Assembly: GCA_011620645.1 (NCBI GenBank)
Contig: WOYS01000073.1
Coordinates: forward strand, 1-39,916
Origin: Mycobacterium sp.
GTDB taxonomy: Bacteria > Actinomycetota > Actinomycetes > Mycobacteriales > Mycobacteriaceae
Direction: 5' to 3'
Length of the DNA stretch: 39,916 bases
A model generated the notes under the pieces. It had not been told where the DNA came from. It saw nothing but the letters and a program-made list of their open reading frames with translations, and made no database searches. The translations under genes were made by a program, and so were the position numbers. Shown here piece after piece: positions 15,707-19,602 of this stretch; within the stretch, counting starts at the first letter, position 1, and every line of letters starts with the position of its first letter.

Positions 15707-16966
15707 ATGGCTACCGGAGGGCAGGAGCGCAGCGACCGGGGAAGGTCACTGTCTGCGCGTGGTCGGCTCGCCCTGGGGGCCGGGGCCGCCGCACGCTGGG
15801 CGTCCCGGGTCACCGGACGTGGCGCCGGGGCGATGATCGGCGGCCTGGTGGCGATGTCGATCGACAAGTCCGTCCTCGGACAGCTCGGAAAGGACCGCCG
15901 CACGGCCGTCGTGACCGGCACGAATGGCAAATCGACCACCACCCGGATGACGGCCGCGGCACTGGCCACGATGGGACCGGTGGCCACCAACGCCGAGGGC
16001 GCCAATATGGACGCCGGGCTGGTGGCCGCGCTGGCCGGTGCCCGCAAGGCCGAGCTGGCGGCGCTGGAAGTCGATGAGATGCACGTGCCGCATGTCAGCG
16101 ACGCGGTCGCGCCGGCGGCGATAGTCCTGCTGAACCTGTCCCGCGATCAACTGGACCGGGTCGGTGAAATCAATCACATCGAACGCACGCTGCGCGCCGG
16201 CCTGGCCCGCCACCCTGAGGCCGTGGTGATCGCCAACTGCGATGACGTGCTGATGGCTTCGGCAGCCTATGACTGTCCGAACGTGGTGTGGGTGGCTGCC
16301 GGCGGCAGCTGGGCAGGCGATTCGGTGAGCTGCCCACGATCGGGCGAGATCATCGTCCGCGACGGCACCCACTGGTATTCCACTGGCACCGATTTCAAGC
16401 GTCCGACACCCCAGTGGACCTACGACGACACCGATATCCATGGCCCGGAGGGCTTTTCGCTGCCGATGACGCTTGCGCTACCGGGAGCCGTCAACCGCGG
16501 CAACGCCACCCAGGCCGTCGCCGCCGCCGTCGCTCTTGGCGCCGACCCGGCCAAGGCGGTGGCCGCCGTATCGACGGTCGACGAGGTCGCGGGCCGGTAC
16601 CGCACCGTGCGGGTCGGCGATCACACCGCGCGACTGCTGCTCGCCAAGAATCCCGCAGGCTGGCAGGAGGCGTTGTCGATGATCGACAAGGATGCAGCGG
16701 GCGTGGTCATCTCGGTGAACGGGCAGGTTCCCGACGGTGAGGACCTGTCGTGGCTGTGGGATGTCCGCTTCGAGCATTTCGAGCGCACCCAGGTGGTGGC
16801 CGCGGGCGAACGCGGTACCGATCTGGCCGTGCGACTCGGTTACGCCGGGGTGGAGCACACACTGGTGCATGACACGATCGCCGCCATCGCATCGTGTCCA
16901 CCAGGCCATGTCGAAGTGATCGCAAACTACACGGCGTTCCTGCAACTGAACCGGAAAGTGTCATGA
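15707..16966 (+). CDS. murT: Lipid II isoglutaminyl synthase ATPase subunit MurT
   Basis: MurT activates the alpha-carboxylate of D-isoglutamate in lipid II with ATP so that GatD-supplied ammonia can amidate it. The 419-residue protein is a Mur-ligase-like enzyme with P-loop VVTGTNGKSTTTR (about residues 68-80), NAEGANMDAG, LEVDEMHVPHV and LLNLSRDQLDRVGE, plus a C-terminal DUF1727 domain (WLWDVRFE). The Cys4 zinc-ribbon insertion of characterised MurT proteins is degenerate: CPRSG at 209-213 keeps one cysteine and the second pair is WYSTG. The gene overlaps gatD by four bases, so the subunits are translationally coupled. Confidence 0.94.
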   Translation: MATGGQERSDRGRSLSARGRLALGAGAAARWASRVTGRGAGAMIGGLVAMSIDKSVLGQLGKDRRTAVVTGTNGKSTTTRMTAAALATMGPVATNAEGANMDAGLVAALAGARKAELAALEVDEMHVPHVSDAVAPAAIVLLNLSRDQLDRVGEINHIERTLRAGLARHPEAVVIANCDDVLMASAAYDCPNVVWVAAGGSWAGDSVSCPRSGEIIVRDGTHWYSTGTDFKRPTPQWTYDDTDIHGPEGFSLPMTLALPGAVNRGNATQAVAAAVALGADPAKAVAAVSTVDEVAGRYRTVRVGDHTARLLLAKNPAGWQEALSMIDKDAAGVVISVNGQVPDGEDLSWLWDVRFEHFERTQVVAAGERGTDLAVRLGYAGVEHTLVHDTIAAIASCPPGHVEVIANYTAFLQLNRKVS

Positions 16967-17670
16967 CCGTCCGGATCGGGCTGGTGCTGCCCGACGTGAT
17001 GGGCACCTACGGTGACAGCGGCAACGCCGTGGTACTGCGGAAGCGCTTGCAATTACGCGGAATCGATGCCGAGATCATCGAGATCACGCTCTCCGACCCG
17101 GTGCCCGACTCTCTGGACATCTATACCCTGGGCGGTGCCGAGGACTACGCGCAGCGGTTGGCCACCAGGCATCTGATCCGCTACCCGGGCCTGCAACGCG
17201 CCGCGGTGCGCGGCGCCCCGGTGCTCGCGATCTGCGCAGCCATCCAGGTGCTCGGGCACTGGTATGAGACCTCGGCGGGGGAACGTGTCGACGGCGTCGG
17301 GCTGCTCGATGTCACCACGTCACCGCAGGACGCTAGGACCATCGGCGAGGTGTCCTCGAAACCGCTGCTCGACGGACTCACCCAGCCACTCACCGGATTC
17401 GAGAACCACCGTGGCGGAACGGTTCTCGGCCGTGATGCCGAGCCGCTGGCCACGTTGACCAAGGGTGCGGGCAACCGGGCCGGCGACGGTTATGACGGCG
17501 CGGTGCAGGGCAGCGTCATCGCCACCTATCTGCACGGTCCATGCCTGGCACGTAACCCGGAGTTGGCCGATCACCTGCTGTCCCAGGTCGTCGGGGAACT
17601 CCCGCCACTGCAGCTGGCCGAGGTGGACCTGCTACGCAATGAGCGACTCGCCGCGCCCCGCCGCGTATGA
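16963..17670 (+). CDS. gatD: Lipid II isoglutaminyl synthase glutaminase subunit GatD
   Basis: GatD is a class I (CobB/CobQ-like) glutamine amidotransferase that supplies ammonia to MurT. The 235-residue protein has the nucleophile cysteine in APVLAICAAIQ (Cys91) and the catalytic histidine in TYLHGPCLARNP (His191). The N-terminal DVMGTYGDSGNAVVL is also typical. The ATG overlaps the murT stop (ATGA), and this start gives the family length. The two-gene order murT-gatD is conserved across Gram-positives. Confidence 0.95.
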   Translation: MTVRIGLVLPDVMGTYGDSGNAVVLRKRLQLRGIDAEIIEITLSDPVPDSLDIYTLGGAEDYAQRLATRHLIRYPGLQRAAVRGAPVLAICAAIQVLGHWYETSAGERVDGVGLLDVTTSPQDARTIGEVSSKPLLDGLTQPLTGFENHRGGTVLGRDAEPLATLTKGAGNRAGDGYDGAVQGSVIATYLHGPCLARNPELADHLLSQVVGELPPLQLAEVDLLRNERLAAPRRV

Positions 17671-17685
17671 GCTTCTACGCCCGAC

Positions 17686-17946
17686 TCAATCGACCTTCAT
17701 AGTCGCGTTACTGAGGGCGGCACGCCTGCGGCCGGCGGCTGCGACCAGTTCGAGGGCCTCGGCTTCACTGCAGGAAAACCAGTCTCCGCTGAACAGCAGC
17801 TTGTCCATGATCGAAACGGATGGCTTCCAATCATCGGTCTTCGCACTGAAAACGGCTGCCTCCGCGATGCCGAATTGAGGATCGCCGAGAGTGGCATCGG
17901 TGTCGACGCGTACGACATGTCCTGCACCGTCGGTGAAGTAGCGCAT
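17686..17946 (-). CDS. Small acidic protein of unknown function downstream of the RecR fusion
   Basis: The 86-residue product starts MRYFTDGAGHVVRVD, with a good GGGAGG site seven bases upstream of the ATG at 17946. A longer frame to 18003 has no such site. It contains mostly beta-type N-terminal sequence, SIMDKLLFSGDWF in the middle and a short helical C terminus (SEAEALELVAAAGRRRAAL). No signal or membrane segment is visible. I do not recognise the family. It lies 44 bases downstream of the recR fusion on the same strand and is probably co-transcribed. By analogy with toxin-immunity or toxin-antitoxin pairs it could neutralise the RelA/SpoT-like domain, but that is inference from position only. 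Confidence 0.65.
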   Translation of the reverse strand: MRYFTDGAGHVVRVDTDATLGDPQFGIAEAAVFSAKTDDWKPSVSIMDKLLFSGDWFSCSEAEALELVAAAGRRRAALSNATMKVD

Positions 17947-17990
17947 TCGCGTGCCTCCCTCAACCTGTAGCGAAATACCCGTCGATGATT

Positions 17991-19268
17991 TCAGTCTATC
18001 CATCTGATGTCATCGGGGGCAGGTACCCGATCGAACACCGCATTCTGACGTATCCTGAGCTGGGCTTTTTCTTCCATTGGAGTTGCTGCCAGGCGCATTA
18101 CACCGTACAGCGAATGTGTTTCTTCCGTCGCGGCCAGCGACGCGGCGGTGTGGAACTGGACTTCAAACTCGAACCCGTCGGCGGTTCGGAACGTGTCATT
18201 TCGACCTTGATGACCCACACGATTCCATCCCGGTGTGGACTTGGCGCGCTGAAATCCTGCCGCCTCGAGAGCATCACCGAACCGCGTTCCACGAGCCCAA
18301 TAATGGTCCTCTCCCAGCACAACGGTGTAGCGAAGCGAGTCTCGGACACCTCCGGCGGCCACCGTTGCATCCTCATCGAACTCCGCCATCTGCTCCTGTA
18401 TCTTCCGATTCAGCGAGTTGGTCCCTTTGAGCCTGGTATCGAAACGGCGAAGCTCGCCACCGAGGTCGCCGGTCACCCGCGCCAGGCCGGCAGATACCGC
18501 GGGCTCTGCTGCGGTGGCTCGCTCACGGACTCGCAATGCCGTCGCCCGCGCCTGTGCGCGCTCATCTGAAGTGAGATCGGCTCTCTCCTGGTTCTCATCC
18601 CACTCAAAGGTGTTCGGGGCGGTCTGAGTCGCCGGTGCCGAAGAACGTGCTGGCCCGGTCGCCATCGCGCGACGGCCGGCGAGCGCACGGCCCAACGTCA
18701 GCTCGTCGGCGAACTCCAGGTCCCCGCCCATCGGCAGTCCGGAGGCGATCCGGCTCACCGTCAGGCCCGGGATATCGCGCAGCATTCGCAGCAGGTACGT
18801 GGCCGTCGCCTCGCCCTCGGTGTTGGGGTCAGTGGCGATGATGACCTCGGCGACCTCGATTCCGTCGACCCGCTCCCCGATCCGGTTGAGCAGCTCACGG
18901 ATGCGGAGCTGATCGGGTCCCACCCCGGACAGCGGATCCAGGGCACCTCCCAGCACGTGGTAGCGGCCCCGGAATTCGCGGGTGCGCTCCACCGCCTGGA
19001 TGTCCTTGGGTTCCTCGACGACGCAGATCAGCGACGCGTCGCGGCGTGCGTCGCTGCAGATGCGGCAGCGCTCCTCATCGGCGACGTTGCCGCACACCGA
19101 GCAGAACGTGACCCCGTCGCGGATCCGGCCGAGCACGGCAGTCAGCCGGTCGATATTCGGCGGCTCCACCGATAGCAGGTGGAAGGCGATGCGCTGGGCA
19201 CTTTTGGGCCCGATACCAGGTAACTTGCCGAGCTCGTCGATCAGATCCTGAACCGGTCCTTCGAACAA
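17991..19268 (-). CDS. recR: RecR fused to a C-terminal RelA/SpoT-like nucleotidyltransferase domain
   Basis: Residues 1-203 are an ordinary RecR, the RecFOR-pathway recombination mediator: helix-hairpin-helix ([17 protein letters not shown]), Cys4 zinc finger (Cys56, 59, 68, 71), Toprim motifs ([18 protein letters not shown]) and the C-terminal [13 protein letters not shown]. RecR normally stops there. This frame continues through a polar linker (204-225) into about 200 extra residues. That extension has helices, then [16 protein letters not shown] (276-290), [11 protein letters not shown] (308-318), FEVQFHT (368-374) and [12 protein letters not shown] (381-392). These match the order of conserved blocks in RelA/SpoT synthetase folds: the R-K-S-K segment, the metal-binding Asp before LRY, the ExQ-RT motif and the terminal helix. 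The fused DNA is locally lower in G+C. Confidence 0.88.
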
Positions 19269-19269
19269 C

Positions 19270-19602
19270 TCAGGTACCCGGGATGCCGAAACCGCCCAGG
19301 CCGCCGGCCAGCGGCCCGAGCCGGGTCTGAGCCAGGATCGTCACCTGCTTGGCGGCGTCGGCGAGCGCACCGACGATGAGGTCCTGCAGTGTCTCGGGAT
19401 CGGATGGATCGATGACCTTCGGGTCGATGGCCACCGCGATGACCTCACCGCTGCCCTTCATGGTGACCTGCACCAGACCGCCACCTCCCTGGCCGTGCAC
19501 CTCGGAGTTGGCCAGCGCCTCCTGCGCCTCCATCAGCTGCTGCTGCACCTGCTGCGCCTGCGCCAGCAGCGCGGACATATCGGGCTGACCACCGGGTTGC
19601 AT
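19270..19602 (-). CDS. YbaB/EbfC family nucleoid-associated protein (Rv3716c-like)
   Basis: The 110-residue protein is a YbaB/EbfC-type DNA-binding dimer. An N-terminal coiled-coil helix rich in glutamine and alanine ([19 protein letters not shown]) is followed by the sheet [20 protein letters not shown] and the [15 protein letters not shown] helix. It sits one base upstream of recR, a pairing conserved in many bacteria. These proteins bind and bend DNA with little sequence specificity. The C-terminal glycine-rich tail ([11 protein letters not shown]) is common in actinobacterial members. Confidence 0.93.

What the first reader, a model, noticed from the sequence alone, without database searches (positions are those of the whole stretch)
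17991..19268. RecR fused to a RelA/SpoT-like nucleotidyltransferase domain
The first 203 codons are a complete, normal RecR. The same frame then continues for about 220 codons into a domain whose ordered blocks ([42 protein letters not shown]) match the RelA/SpoT synthetase fold. Toxic small alarmone synthetases (toxSAS, such as FaRel2 and CapRel) use this fold to pyrophosphorylate tRNA or nucleotides and stop growth, some in response to phage. Attaching such a domain to a housekeeping recombination mediator suggests a guard arrangement that senses DNA damage or phage attack on the RecFOR pathway. That role is inference. I know of no described RecR of this form.
Basis: partly seen in the sequence, partly recalled or inferred. 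Interest (0 to 1): 0.88.

Follow-up and report, generated by a model that had tools for sequence, protein, structure and literature searches.

The report
RecR fused to alarmone-making toxin domain
In one mycobacterium the DNA-repair gene recR has lost its stop codon and runs on into a toxin-like enzyme domain of the alarmone synthetase family, with a likely antidote gene just behind it, as if a toxin-antidote cassette had hooked itself onto a housekeeping gene.

Summary
In detail: minus-strand ORF 17991-19268 is a normal RecR (codons 1-202) continuing in frame for 223 codons. The extension is a RelA/SpoT-fold alarmone synthetase. Pfam's RelA_SpoT model misses it, but it matches the solved Streptomyces enzyme 8vx3 (E 2.4e-20) and keeps its active-site residues. 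It belongs to the Apk/EAS toxin domains known from phage MuF proteins and secreted effectors (PMC12226406, PMC12691689). Both have foreign composition, and the domain has no good start of its own, so it is probably made only as a RecR fusion. Of 389 genus genomes with a RecR match, only this one shows the fusion in the rows listed. Literature searches listed no description of it. Best reading: a toxin-immunity cassette captured at the recR-gatD junction. The guard role has no specific evidence. New variant of a known kind, a singleton; activity, immunity and role are untested.

The parts
18663..19268 (-). RecR part of the fused gene, codons 1-202 (TTG start); the only RecR match in this genome
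   Evidence: TIGR00615 264 bits; RecR_HhH, ZnF, Toprim, RecR_C; one match in G000; 92.6-96.0% identity to RecR of 21 sampled relatives
18606..18662 (-). Linker, codons 203-221 (Ala/Pro/Thr-rich), where similarity to other recR genes ends
   Evidence: nucleotide alignments to recR of relatives end at 18656-18662 in 29 of 29 loci and at 18645-18669 in 35 of 36 same-genus genomes, the last having no recR match
18012..18605 (-). Alarmone synthetase (Apk/EAS SYNTH) domain, about residues 222-419 (248-419 aligned to 8vx3 by phmmer; the upstream limit is estimated)
   Evidence: 8vx3 E 2.4e-20, profile 4.4e-58; C-terminus of the XopAD model 4e-27; MuF/head proteins; 13 of 13 columns invariant in 45 homologues kept
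17686..17946 (-). Candidate immunity (antitoxin) gene, 86 aa, ATG at 17946 (upstream ATG at 18003 less likely)
   Evidence: Shine-Dalgarno duplex -12.1 kcal/mol against 0.0 for 18003; relatives directly behind the toxin relatives in L003 (42%) and L131 (34%)
17954..17961 (-). Shine-Dalgarno-like GAGGGAGG before the immunity ATG
17667..18661 (.). Cassette of about 995 bp between the convergent genes recR and gatD, limits set by where alignments to L026 end (the gatD stop codon lies just inside); in L026/L213 5 bp lie between the aligned recR and gatD sequences
   Evidence: GC3 of the extension 0.623 and immunity gene 0.686 against 0.856 for recR
16894..17670 (+). gatD/cobQ2-like gene, convergent neighbour (start may be internal; name recalled)
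   Evidence: synteny
19270..19602 (-). ybaB-like gene immediately upstream of recR (name recalled)

Best explanation
A horizontally acquired toxin-immunity cassette of the Apk/EAS type sits between the convergent genes recR and gatD and has fused in frame to recR after codon 202. The protein made is RecR carrying, behind a short linker, an alarmone synthetase that would transfer pyrophosphate from ATP to the 3'-OH of ATP/ADP (possibly also GTP/GDP). The small downstream gene makes an immunity protein, probably by binding the synthetase, that keeps the cell alive. RecR acts mainly as carrier: its transcription and translation start express the toxin, and the cassette then behaves like a toxin-antitoxin element that is hard to lose. 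Shown: the fusion ORF, domain homology, kept catalytic residues, paired immunity relatives, foreign composition, absence of a good internal start. Inferred: enzymatic activity, neutralisation, carrier role, addiction.
For: Homology to the solved SaEAS/SaSAS 8vx3. Residues aligned to SaEAS D121, R124, K154, N169, E182 and Q184 (named in PMC12691689, section 5) are D310, R313, K343, N357, E369 and Q371 here (at D121 the crystal carries alanine). RYT and GxN, the syn2 and syn3 signature of the adenosine-type enzyme Apk2 (PMC12226406), are kept. Tree of 54 domains: this domain groups (support 0.96) with two stand-alone toxin ORFs, L131 (phage contig, directly behind a MuF-like gene) and L003 (chromosome), each followed by a relative of this immunity protein. 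GC3 0.62 and 0.69 against 0.86. In-frame starts before the first catalytic block (codons 192, 202, 245, 265) have no ribosome site better than background, whereas the immunity start does. Ordinary RecR ends in relatives and a nearly empty site in L026.
Against: One genome only, so no test of selection. The immunity candidate matches no Pfam, NCBIfam or PADLOC family and no solved structure, and its link to L131's gene is weak by E-value (0.15 and 0.11) though it holds the same position. Immunity relatives also occur in G208, G178 and G161, where one search found no such domain. The syn4 motif of Apk2 is YH, here FH (as in SaEAS), so the acceptor nucleotide is open. Mycobacterial starts often lack strong ribosome sites (recR's own scores -3.9), so an internal start is not excluded. 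No repeat pair marks both ends of the cassette. Raw reads could not be checked.
Confidence: 0.6

Rival explanations
1. Evolutionary accident: the cassette fell in next to recR, the fusion is tolerated, the domain is silent in the fusion or permanently neutralised, and it is on its way out.
For: Seen in 1 of 389 genus genomes with a RecR match; recR-gatD is a variable site, 5 to 3751 bp between the genes in 18 of 21 sampled genomes and gatD out of reach in 3.
Against: Reading frame, catalytic residues and immunity gene are all intact.
Confidence: 0.2
2. Guard: the synthetase is held off by RecR and/or the immunity candidate and released when DNA damage or a phage perturbs RecFOR, causing growth arrest.
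For: Physical link to a recombination mediator; CapRel shows that a toxSAS can be phage-triggered (stated in the introduction of PMC12691689, passage; PMC9712102 seen only as listing and abstract start).
Against: No PADLOC family for the three proteins scanned; no defence gene recognised by eye among the ORFs; no second lineage with the fusion in the loci examined.
Confidence: 0.12
3. A bifunctional repair-signalling enzyme like mycobacterial RelZ (RNase HII plus alarmone synthetase), making a useful alarmone at repair sites.
For: RelZ is a precedent in Mycobacterium: a nucleic-acid enzyme fused to an alarmone synthetase, upregulated under UV stress (PMC7591505, passages).
Against: This domain is of the toxin (Apk/EAS) branch with an adjacent immunity-like gene, and it is a singleton.
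Confidence: 0.08

Closest known systems
SaEAS/SaSAS (PDB 8vx3), exported alarmone synthetase of Streptomyces (PMC12691689)
   Same: Same catalytic domain, E 2.4e-20, same active-site residues
   Different: SaEAS carries a Sec signal and has no adjacent immunity gene; here the carrier is RecR and an immunity-like gene follows
Apk2 MuF polymorphic toxins with IapK/Aph1 (PMC12226406)
   Same: Homologous C-terminal domain in 38 of 50,697 phage records, 30 of the 38 annotated as head or capsid proteins; toxin then small immunity order
   Different: MuF replaced by RecR; no HD hydrolase domain in the two cassette proteins; the immunity candidate was not shown to be IapK-like
Stand-alone toxin-immunity pairs in L003/L211 (same genus, 44%) and L131 (phage contig, 45%)
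   Same: Closest toxin relatives with related small proteins behind them
   Different: Not fused to another protein; L131 lies directly behind a MuF-like gene, L003/L211 beside a dnaK-like gene (name recalled) with an HD-domain ORF nearby
RelZ (RNase HII-alarmone synthetase, M. smegmatis; PMC7591505)
   Same: Nucleic-acid maintenance enzyme fused to an alarmone synthetase in a mycobacterium
   Different: Different partner; the RelA_SpoT model does not hit here; no immunity gene is mentioned in the passages read
toxSAS toxin-antitoxin modules (FaRel2/CapRel act on tRNA, FaRel makes (p)ppApp; abstract starts, passage)
   Same: Toxic RelA/SpoT-fold synthetase with an antidote
   Different: None of them appeared in the PDB searches with this domain; none is described there as fused to RecR

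Membership tests
Apk/EAS alarmone synthetase domain | Homology over the SYNTH domain to a characterised member | tested here: met
   8vx3, residues 48-219 of P0002 (248-419 of the fusion), E 2.4e-20; profile E 4.4e-58
Apk/EAS alarmone synthetase domain | Catalytic residues present | tested here: met
   13 of 13 columns invariant in 45 homologues are kept; SaEAS active-site equivalents kept
Apk/EAS alarmone synthetase domain | (p)ppApp or (p)ppGpp synthesis | not testable with these tools
   needs an enzyme assay
Apk/EAS alarmone synthetase domain | Export or delivery domain at the N-terminus | tested here: not met
   the N-terminal half is RecR; the Pfam scan shows no secretion domain
Pfam RelA_SpoT (PF04607) | Score over curated cut-off | tested here: not met
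   no hit for P0001 or P0002; the only match in the own genome is on contig C38, not here
Toxin-immunity (TA) pair | Small adjacent gene paired with the toxin in relatives | tested here: met
   L003 and L131, the two nearest toxin relatives; the L131 link is weak by E-value
Toxin-immunity (TA) pair | Toxicity and neutralisation | not testable with these tools
   needs an expression test
RecR | Full RecR architecture (HhH, Zn finger, Toprim, C-terminus) | tested here: met
RecR | Natural stop at about codon 203 | tested here: not met
Known anti-phage defence system | Match to a PADLOC model | tested here: not met
   0 families for P0001, P0002 and P0003

The most novel reading that the evidence does not exclude
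A repair-tethered toxin: RecR places the alarmone synthetase at damaged or stalled DNA, and loss or saturation of the immunity protein there starts a local burst of (p)ppApp, so that a housekeeping recombination mediator has become the sensing half of a growth-arrest or abortive-infection module.
Probability: 0.1. Interest if true: 0.85.

Novelty: new variant of a known kind. Interest (0 to 1): 0.52.

Why it matters
Alarmone-synthetase toxin domains are known behind delivery domains (T3SS, T6SS, T7SS, MuF, eCIS, Sec; PMC12691689). Here one sits behind an ordinary repair protein, in the only recR copy found. If active, it shows a new way for a toxin-immunity cassette to secure expression and persistence, by replacing a housekeeping gene's stop codon, and gives a natural construct for asking whether tethering such a toxin to repair sites changes its effect.

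Tried and rejected
Rejected: assignment by Pfam RelA_SpoT (no hit); export as a polymorphic toxin (no delivery domain in the Pfam scan); a frameshift or stop-codon error (after codon 202 the sequence differs wholly from the 8 relatives read, not by one base); a chimeric assembly (recR/ybaB and gatD flanks keep the order of relatives; raw reads could not be checked). Of the 20 of 396 genomes matched, I kept 10 (own genome included) and set 10 aside as noise (E 7.6e-5 to 7.6e-4; 9 of the 10 with stops inside). In the profile search of the PDB I disregarded non-RSH hits, among them a repeat-only lysozyme hit at 3.5e-4 with no stretch passing by itself. The XopAD and PRK09169 hits lie far below the whole-protein cut-offs of those very long models; I use them as domain homology only. 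Led nowhere: viral scan with P0002 alone (10 stretches, 0 relatives); P0003 in plasmids and phages (no match); P0003 in Pfam, NCBIfam and PADLOC (none), in PHROGs (two weak hits, E 0.14 and 0.15, disregarded) and, as alignment A3, in the PDB (none); repeats (no pair with one copy at each end of the cassette); promoters and terminators (one promoter-like match just before the immunity gene, 0.3 expected; no terminator-like site); a general paper search on toxin fusions to housekeeping genes (8 of 45 listed, none relevant by listing).

Full report
OBSERVATION. The ORF at 17991-19268 lies on the minus strand, 425 aa, TTG start, one base after the end of the ybaB-like gene (name recalled). RecR is complete: TIGR00615 264 bits, RecR_HhH, Zn finger, Toprim, and RecR_C to residue 200. 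In the 8 relatives read at the junction RecR ends ...GRRAMV-stop; here it reads ...[13 protein letters not shown].... Nucleotide similarity to the recR of relatives stops at window 18656-18662 in 29 of 29 loci other than the window's own, and at 18645-18669 in 35 of 36 same-genus genomes of another search, the remaining one having no recR match.

RARITY. P0001 against 396 genomes of the genus (drawn from a larger group): 389 match, 7 do not, and among the rows listed only the window's own genome matches through residue 425; the next best ends at 214, and no other listed row goes beyond 256. The list of rows is cut, but it is sorted by score and a second fusion would rank near the top. The own genome has one RecR match. 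Loci with relatives of the domain from the genome and viral collections (159 loci, L052-L210, the best of 148 and 161 relatives found), from the genus (L003-L021) and from the order (17 further loci, L226-L242; 40 of 397 genomes match) show no RecR in the stretch held. So the fusion was seen once; genomes outside these samples were not examined, and records very near the window's own may be left out by the tools.

THE DOMAIN. Pfam finds no RelA_SpoT. NCBIfam matches the C-terminus of the XopAD model (4e-27, far below that long model's cut-off), PHROGs the C-terminus of a head-morphogenesis family (2.4e-14). In phages 38 of 50,697 records match, 30 of the 38 annotated as head or capsid proteins; in plasmids 35 of 72,556 records, 20 of the 30 listed named XopAD, the first listed a Streptomyces 'ATP nucleotide 3'-pyrophosphokinase' at 39% identity over 67% of the query. 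The solved structure 8vx3 matches at E 2.4e-20, the profile at 4.4e-58, Tas1 6ox6 only at 0.0024. All 13 residues invariant in 45 homologues are kept, as are the equivalents of the SaEAS active-site residues (with section 5 of PMC12691689). RYT and GxN fit the adenosine-type signature of Apk2, the third motif is FH instead of YH (PMC12226406, parts 1-3 of 4 read). SaEAS, which shares RYT, GxN and FH, makes both (p)ppApp and (p)ppGpp, so the acceptor stays open.

THE PARTNER GENE. Behind the toxin stop lies an ORF whose likely start (ATG 17946) has a strong Shine-Dalgarno site (duplex -12.1 kcal/mol; random positions in recR: mean -5.0, fifth percentile -10.3). In-frame starts of the extension before its first catalytic block (codons 202, 245, 265) score -1.7, -4.6 and -2.7, so the domain is probably translated only with RecR; RecR's own TTG is weak too (-3.9), which would fit coupling to the gene before it and warns against relying on this score alone. 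Relatives of the small protein follow the domain in L003 (42% over 74 residues) and in phage contig L131 (34% in a two-sequence alignment; E 0.15). A tree of 54 domains groups the window's domain with exactly these two, support 0.96. In L131 the toxin ORF stands directly behind a MuF-like gene (PF04233 E 3.9e-5, under its cut-off). Against a strict pairing, relatives of the immunity protein stand without a detected domain in G208 (three copies), G178 and G161; in all 5 of 396 genomes have one. Solitary immunity genes are common in polymorphic-toxin systems (recalled). Several other domain relatives of the genus are followed by a different small family that is also found beside the domain in other actinobacteria.

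ORIGIN. GC3 is 0.623 in the extension and 0.686 in the immunity gene against 0.856 in recR; GC is 0.58-0.59 in the 300-base windows from 17700 to 18449. In L026/L213 only 5 bp lie between the aligned recR and gatD sequences; in 18 of 21 sampled genomes the spacing runs from 5 to 3751 bp, in 3 gatD was not in reach. The junction thus tolerates insertions; because many relatives carry about 1 kb or more of other DNA there, the cassette may have replaced older cargo rather than entered an empty site. No repeat pair marks both ends, and the two cassette proteins show no mobility domain in Pfam; ORFs on the opposite strand were not scanned.

MECHANISM. Most likely a captured toxin-immunity cassette with RecR as carrier (0.6). 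A silent passenger (0.2), a guard (0.12) and a RelZ-like repair enzyme (0.08) remain. RelZ, RNase HII fused to an alarmone synthetase, is the nearest precedent of such a fusion that I found (PMC7591505, passages). The own genome's only RelA_SpoT and HD_4 matches lie together on contig C38 in one 793-residue open frame, so neither RelZ nor a separate small hydrolase was detected by those two models. The guard idea has no specific support: 0 PADLOC families for three proteins and no defence gene recognised by eye beside it.

LITERATURE. Searches for RecR with alarmone synthetase (2 papers, one occurrence of each term, listing only), RecR with C-terminal extension and Mycobacterium (2 papers, listing only) and RecR with toxin-domain terms (13 papers, 10 listed, listing only) showed no description of such a fusion. 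PMC12691689 (abstract, sections 5 and 9, passages) names WXG/LXG, XopAD, MuF, DUF4157, Rhs/PAAR and Sec carriers; the words beginning 'recr' that I saw in it are 'recruit'. Most subscription papers and all preprints are outside the library, so absence from print is not shown.

Noticed in passing
window 17667-18661 and loci L213, L243-L262: The recR-gatD convergent junction is variable across the genus: 5 to 3751 bp between the genes in 18 of 21 genomes, gatD not within reach in 3. It may be an insertion hotspot.
   Followed up: partly
L131:287-3935 (IMGVR_UViG_2814123403_000003): A phage contig carries a stand-alone alarmone-synthetase toxin ORF and a small immunity-like ORF directly behind a MuF-like gene: an apparently split Apk2 arrangement.
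   Followed up: partly
L271:7356-8334 (G208): Three immunity-like copies close together, near a 107-aa WXG-like ORF (by eye) and a 558-aa ORF with an alpha/beta-hydrolase domain.
   Followed up: partly
L211:7423-9675 (G049): Toxin, immunity and an HD-domain ORF (weak HD_4, E 0.0011, under its cut-off) lie near one another beside a dnaK-like gene (name recalled), resembling the apk2-iapK-aph1 order.
   Followed up: partly
L007:790-3585 (G306; contig of the same length as L084, Mycobacterium talmoniae): The alarmone-synthetase domain lies inside a frame given as 2559 residues and the frame runs on for hundreds of residues behind it.
   Followed up: no
L005/L006 (G092, G088): 443-aa ORFs with a signal-peptide-like start (by eye) and the domain at the end, followed by a small gene of another immunity-like family found beside the domain in many loci.
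   Followed up: partly
L212:7124-9542 (G162): The domain ORF overlaps the end of a 700-aa ORF in another frame.
   Followed up: no
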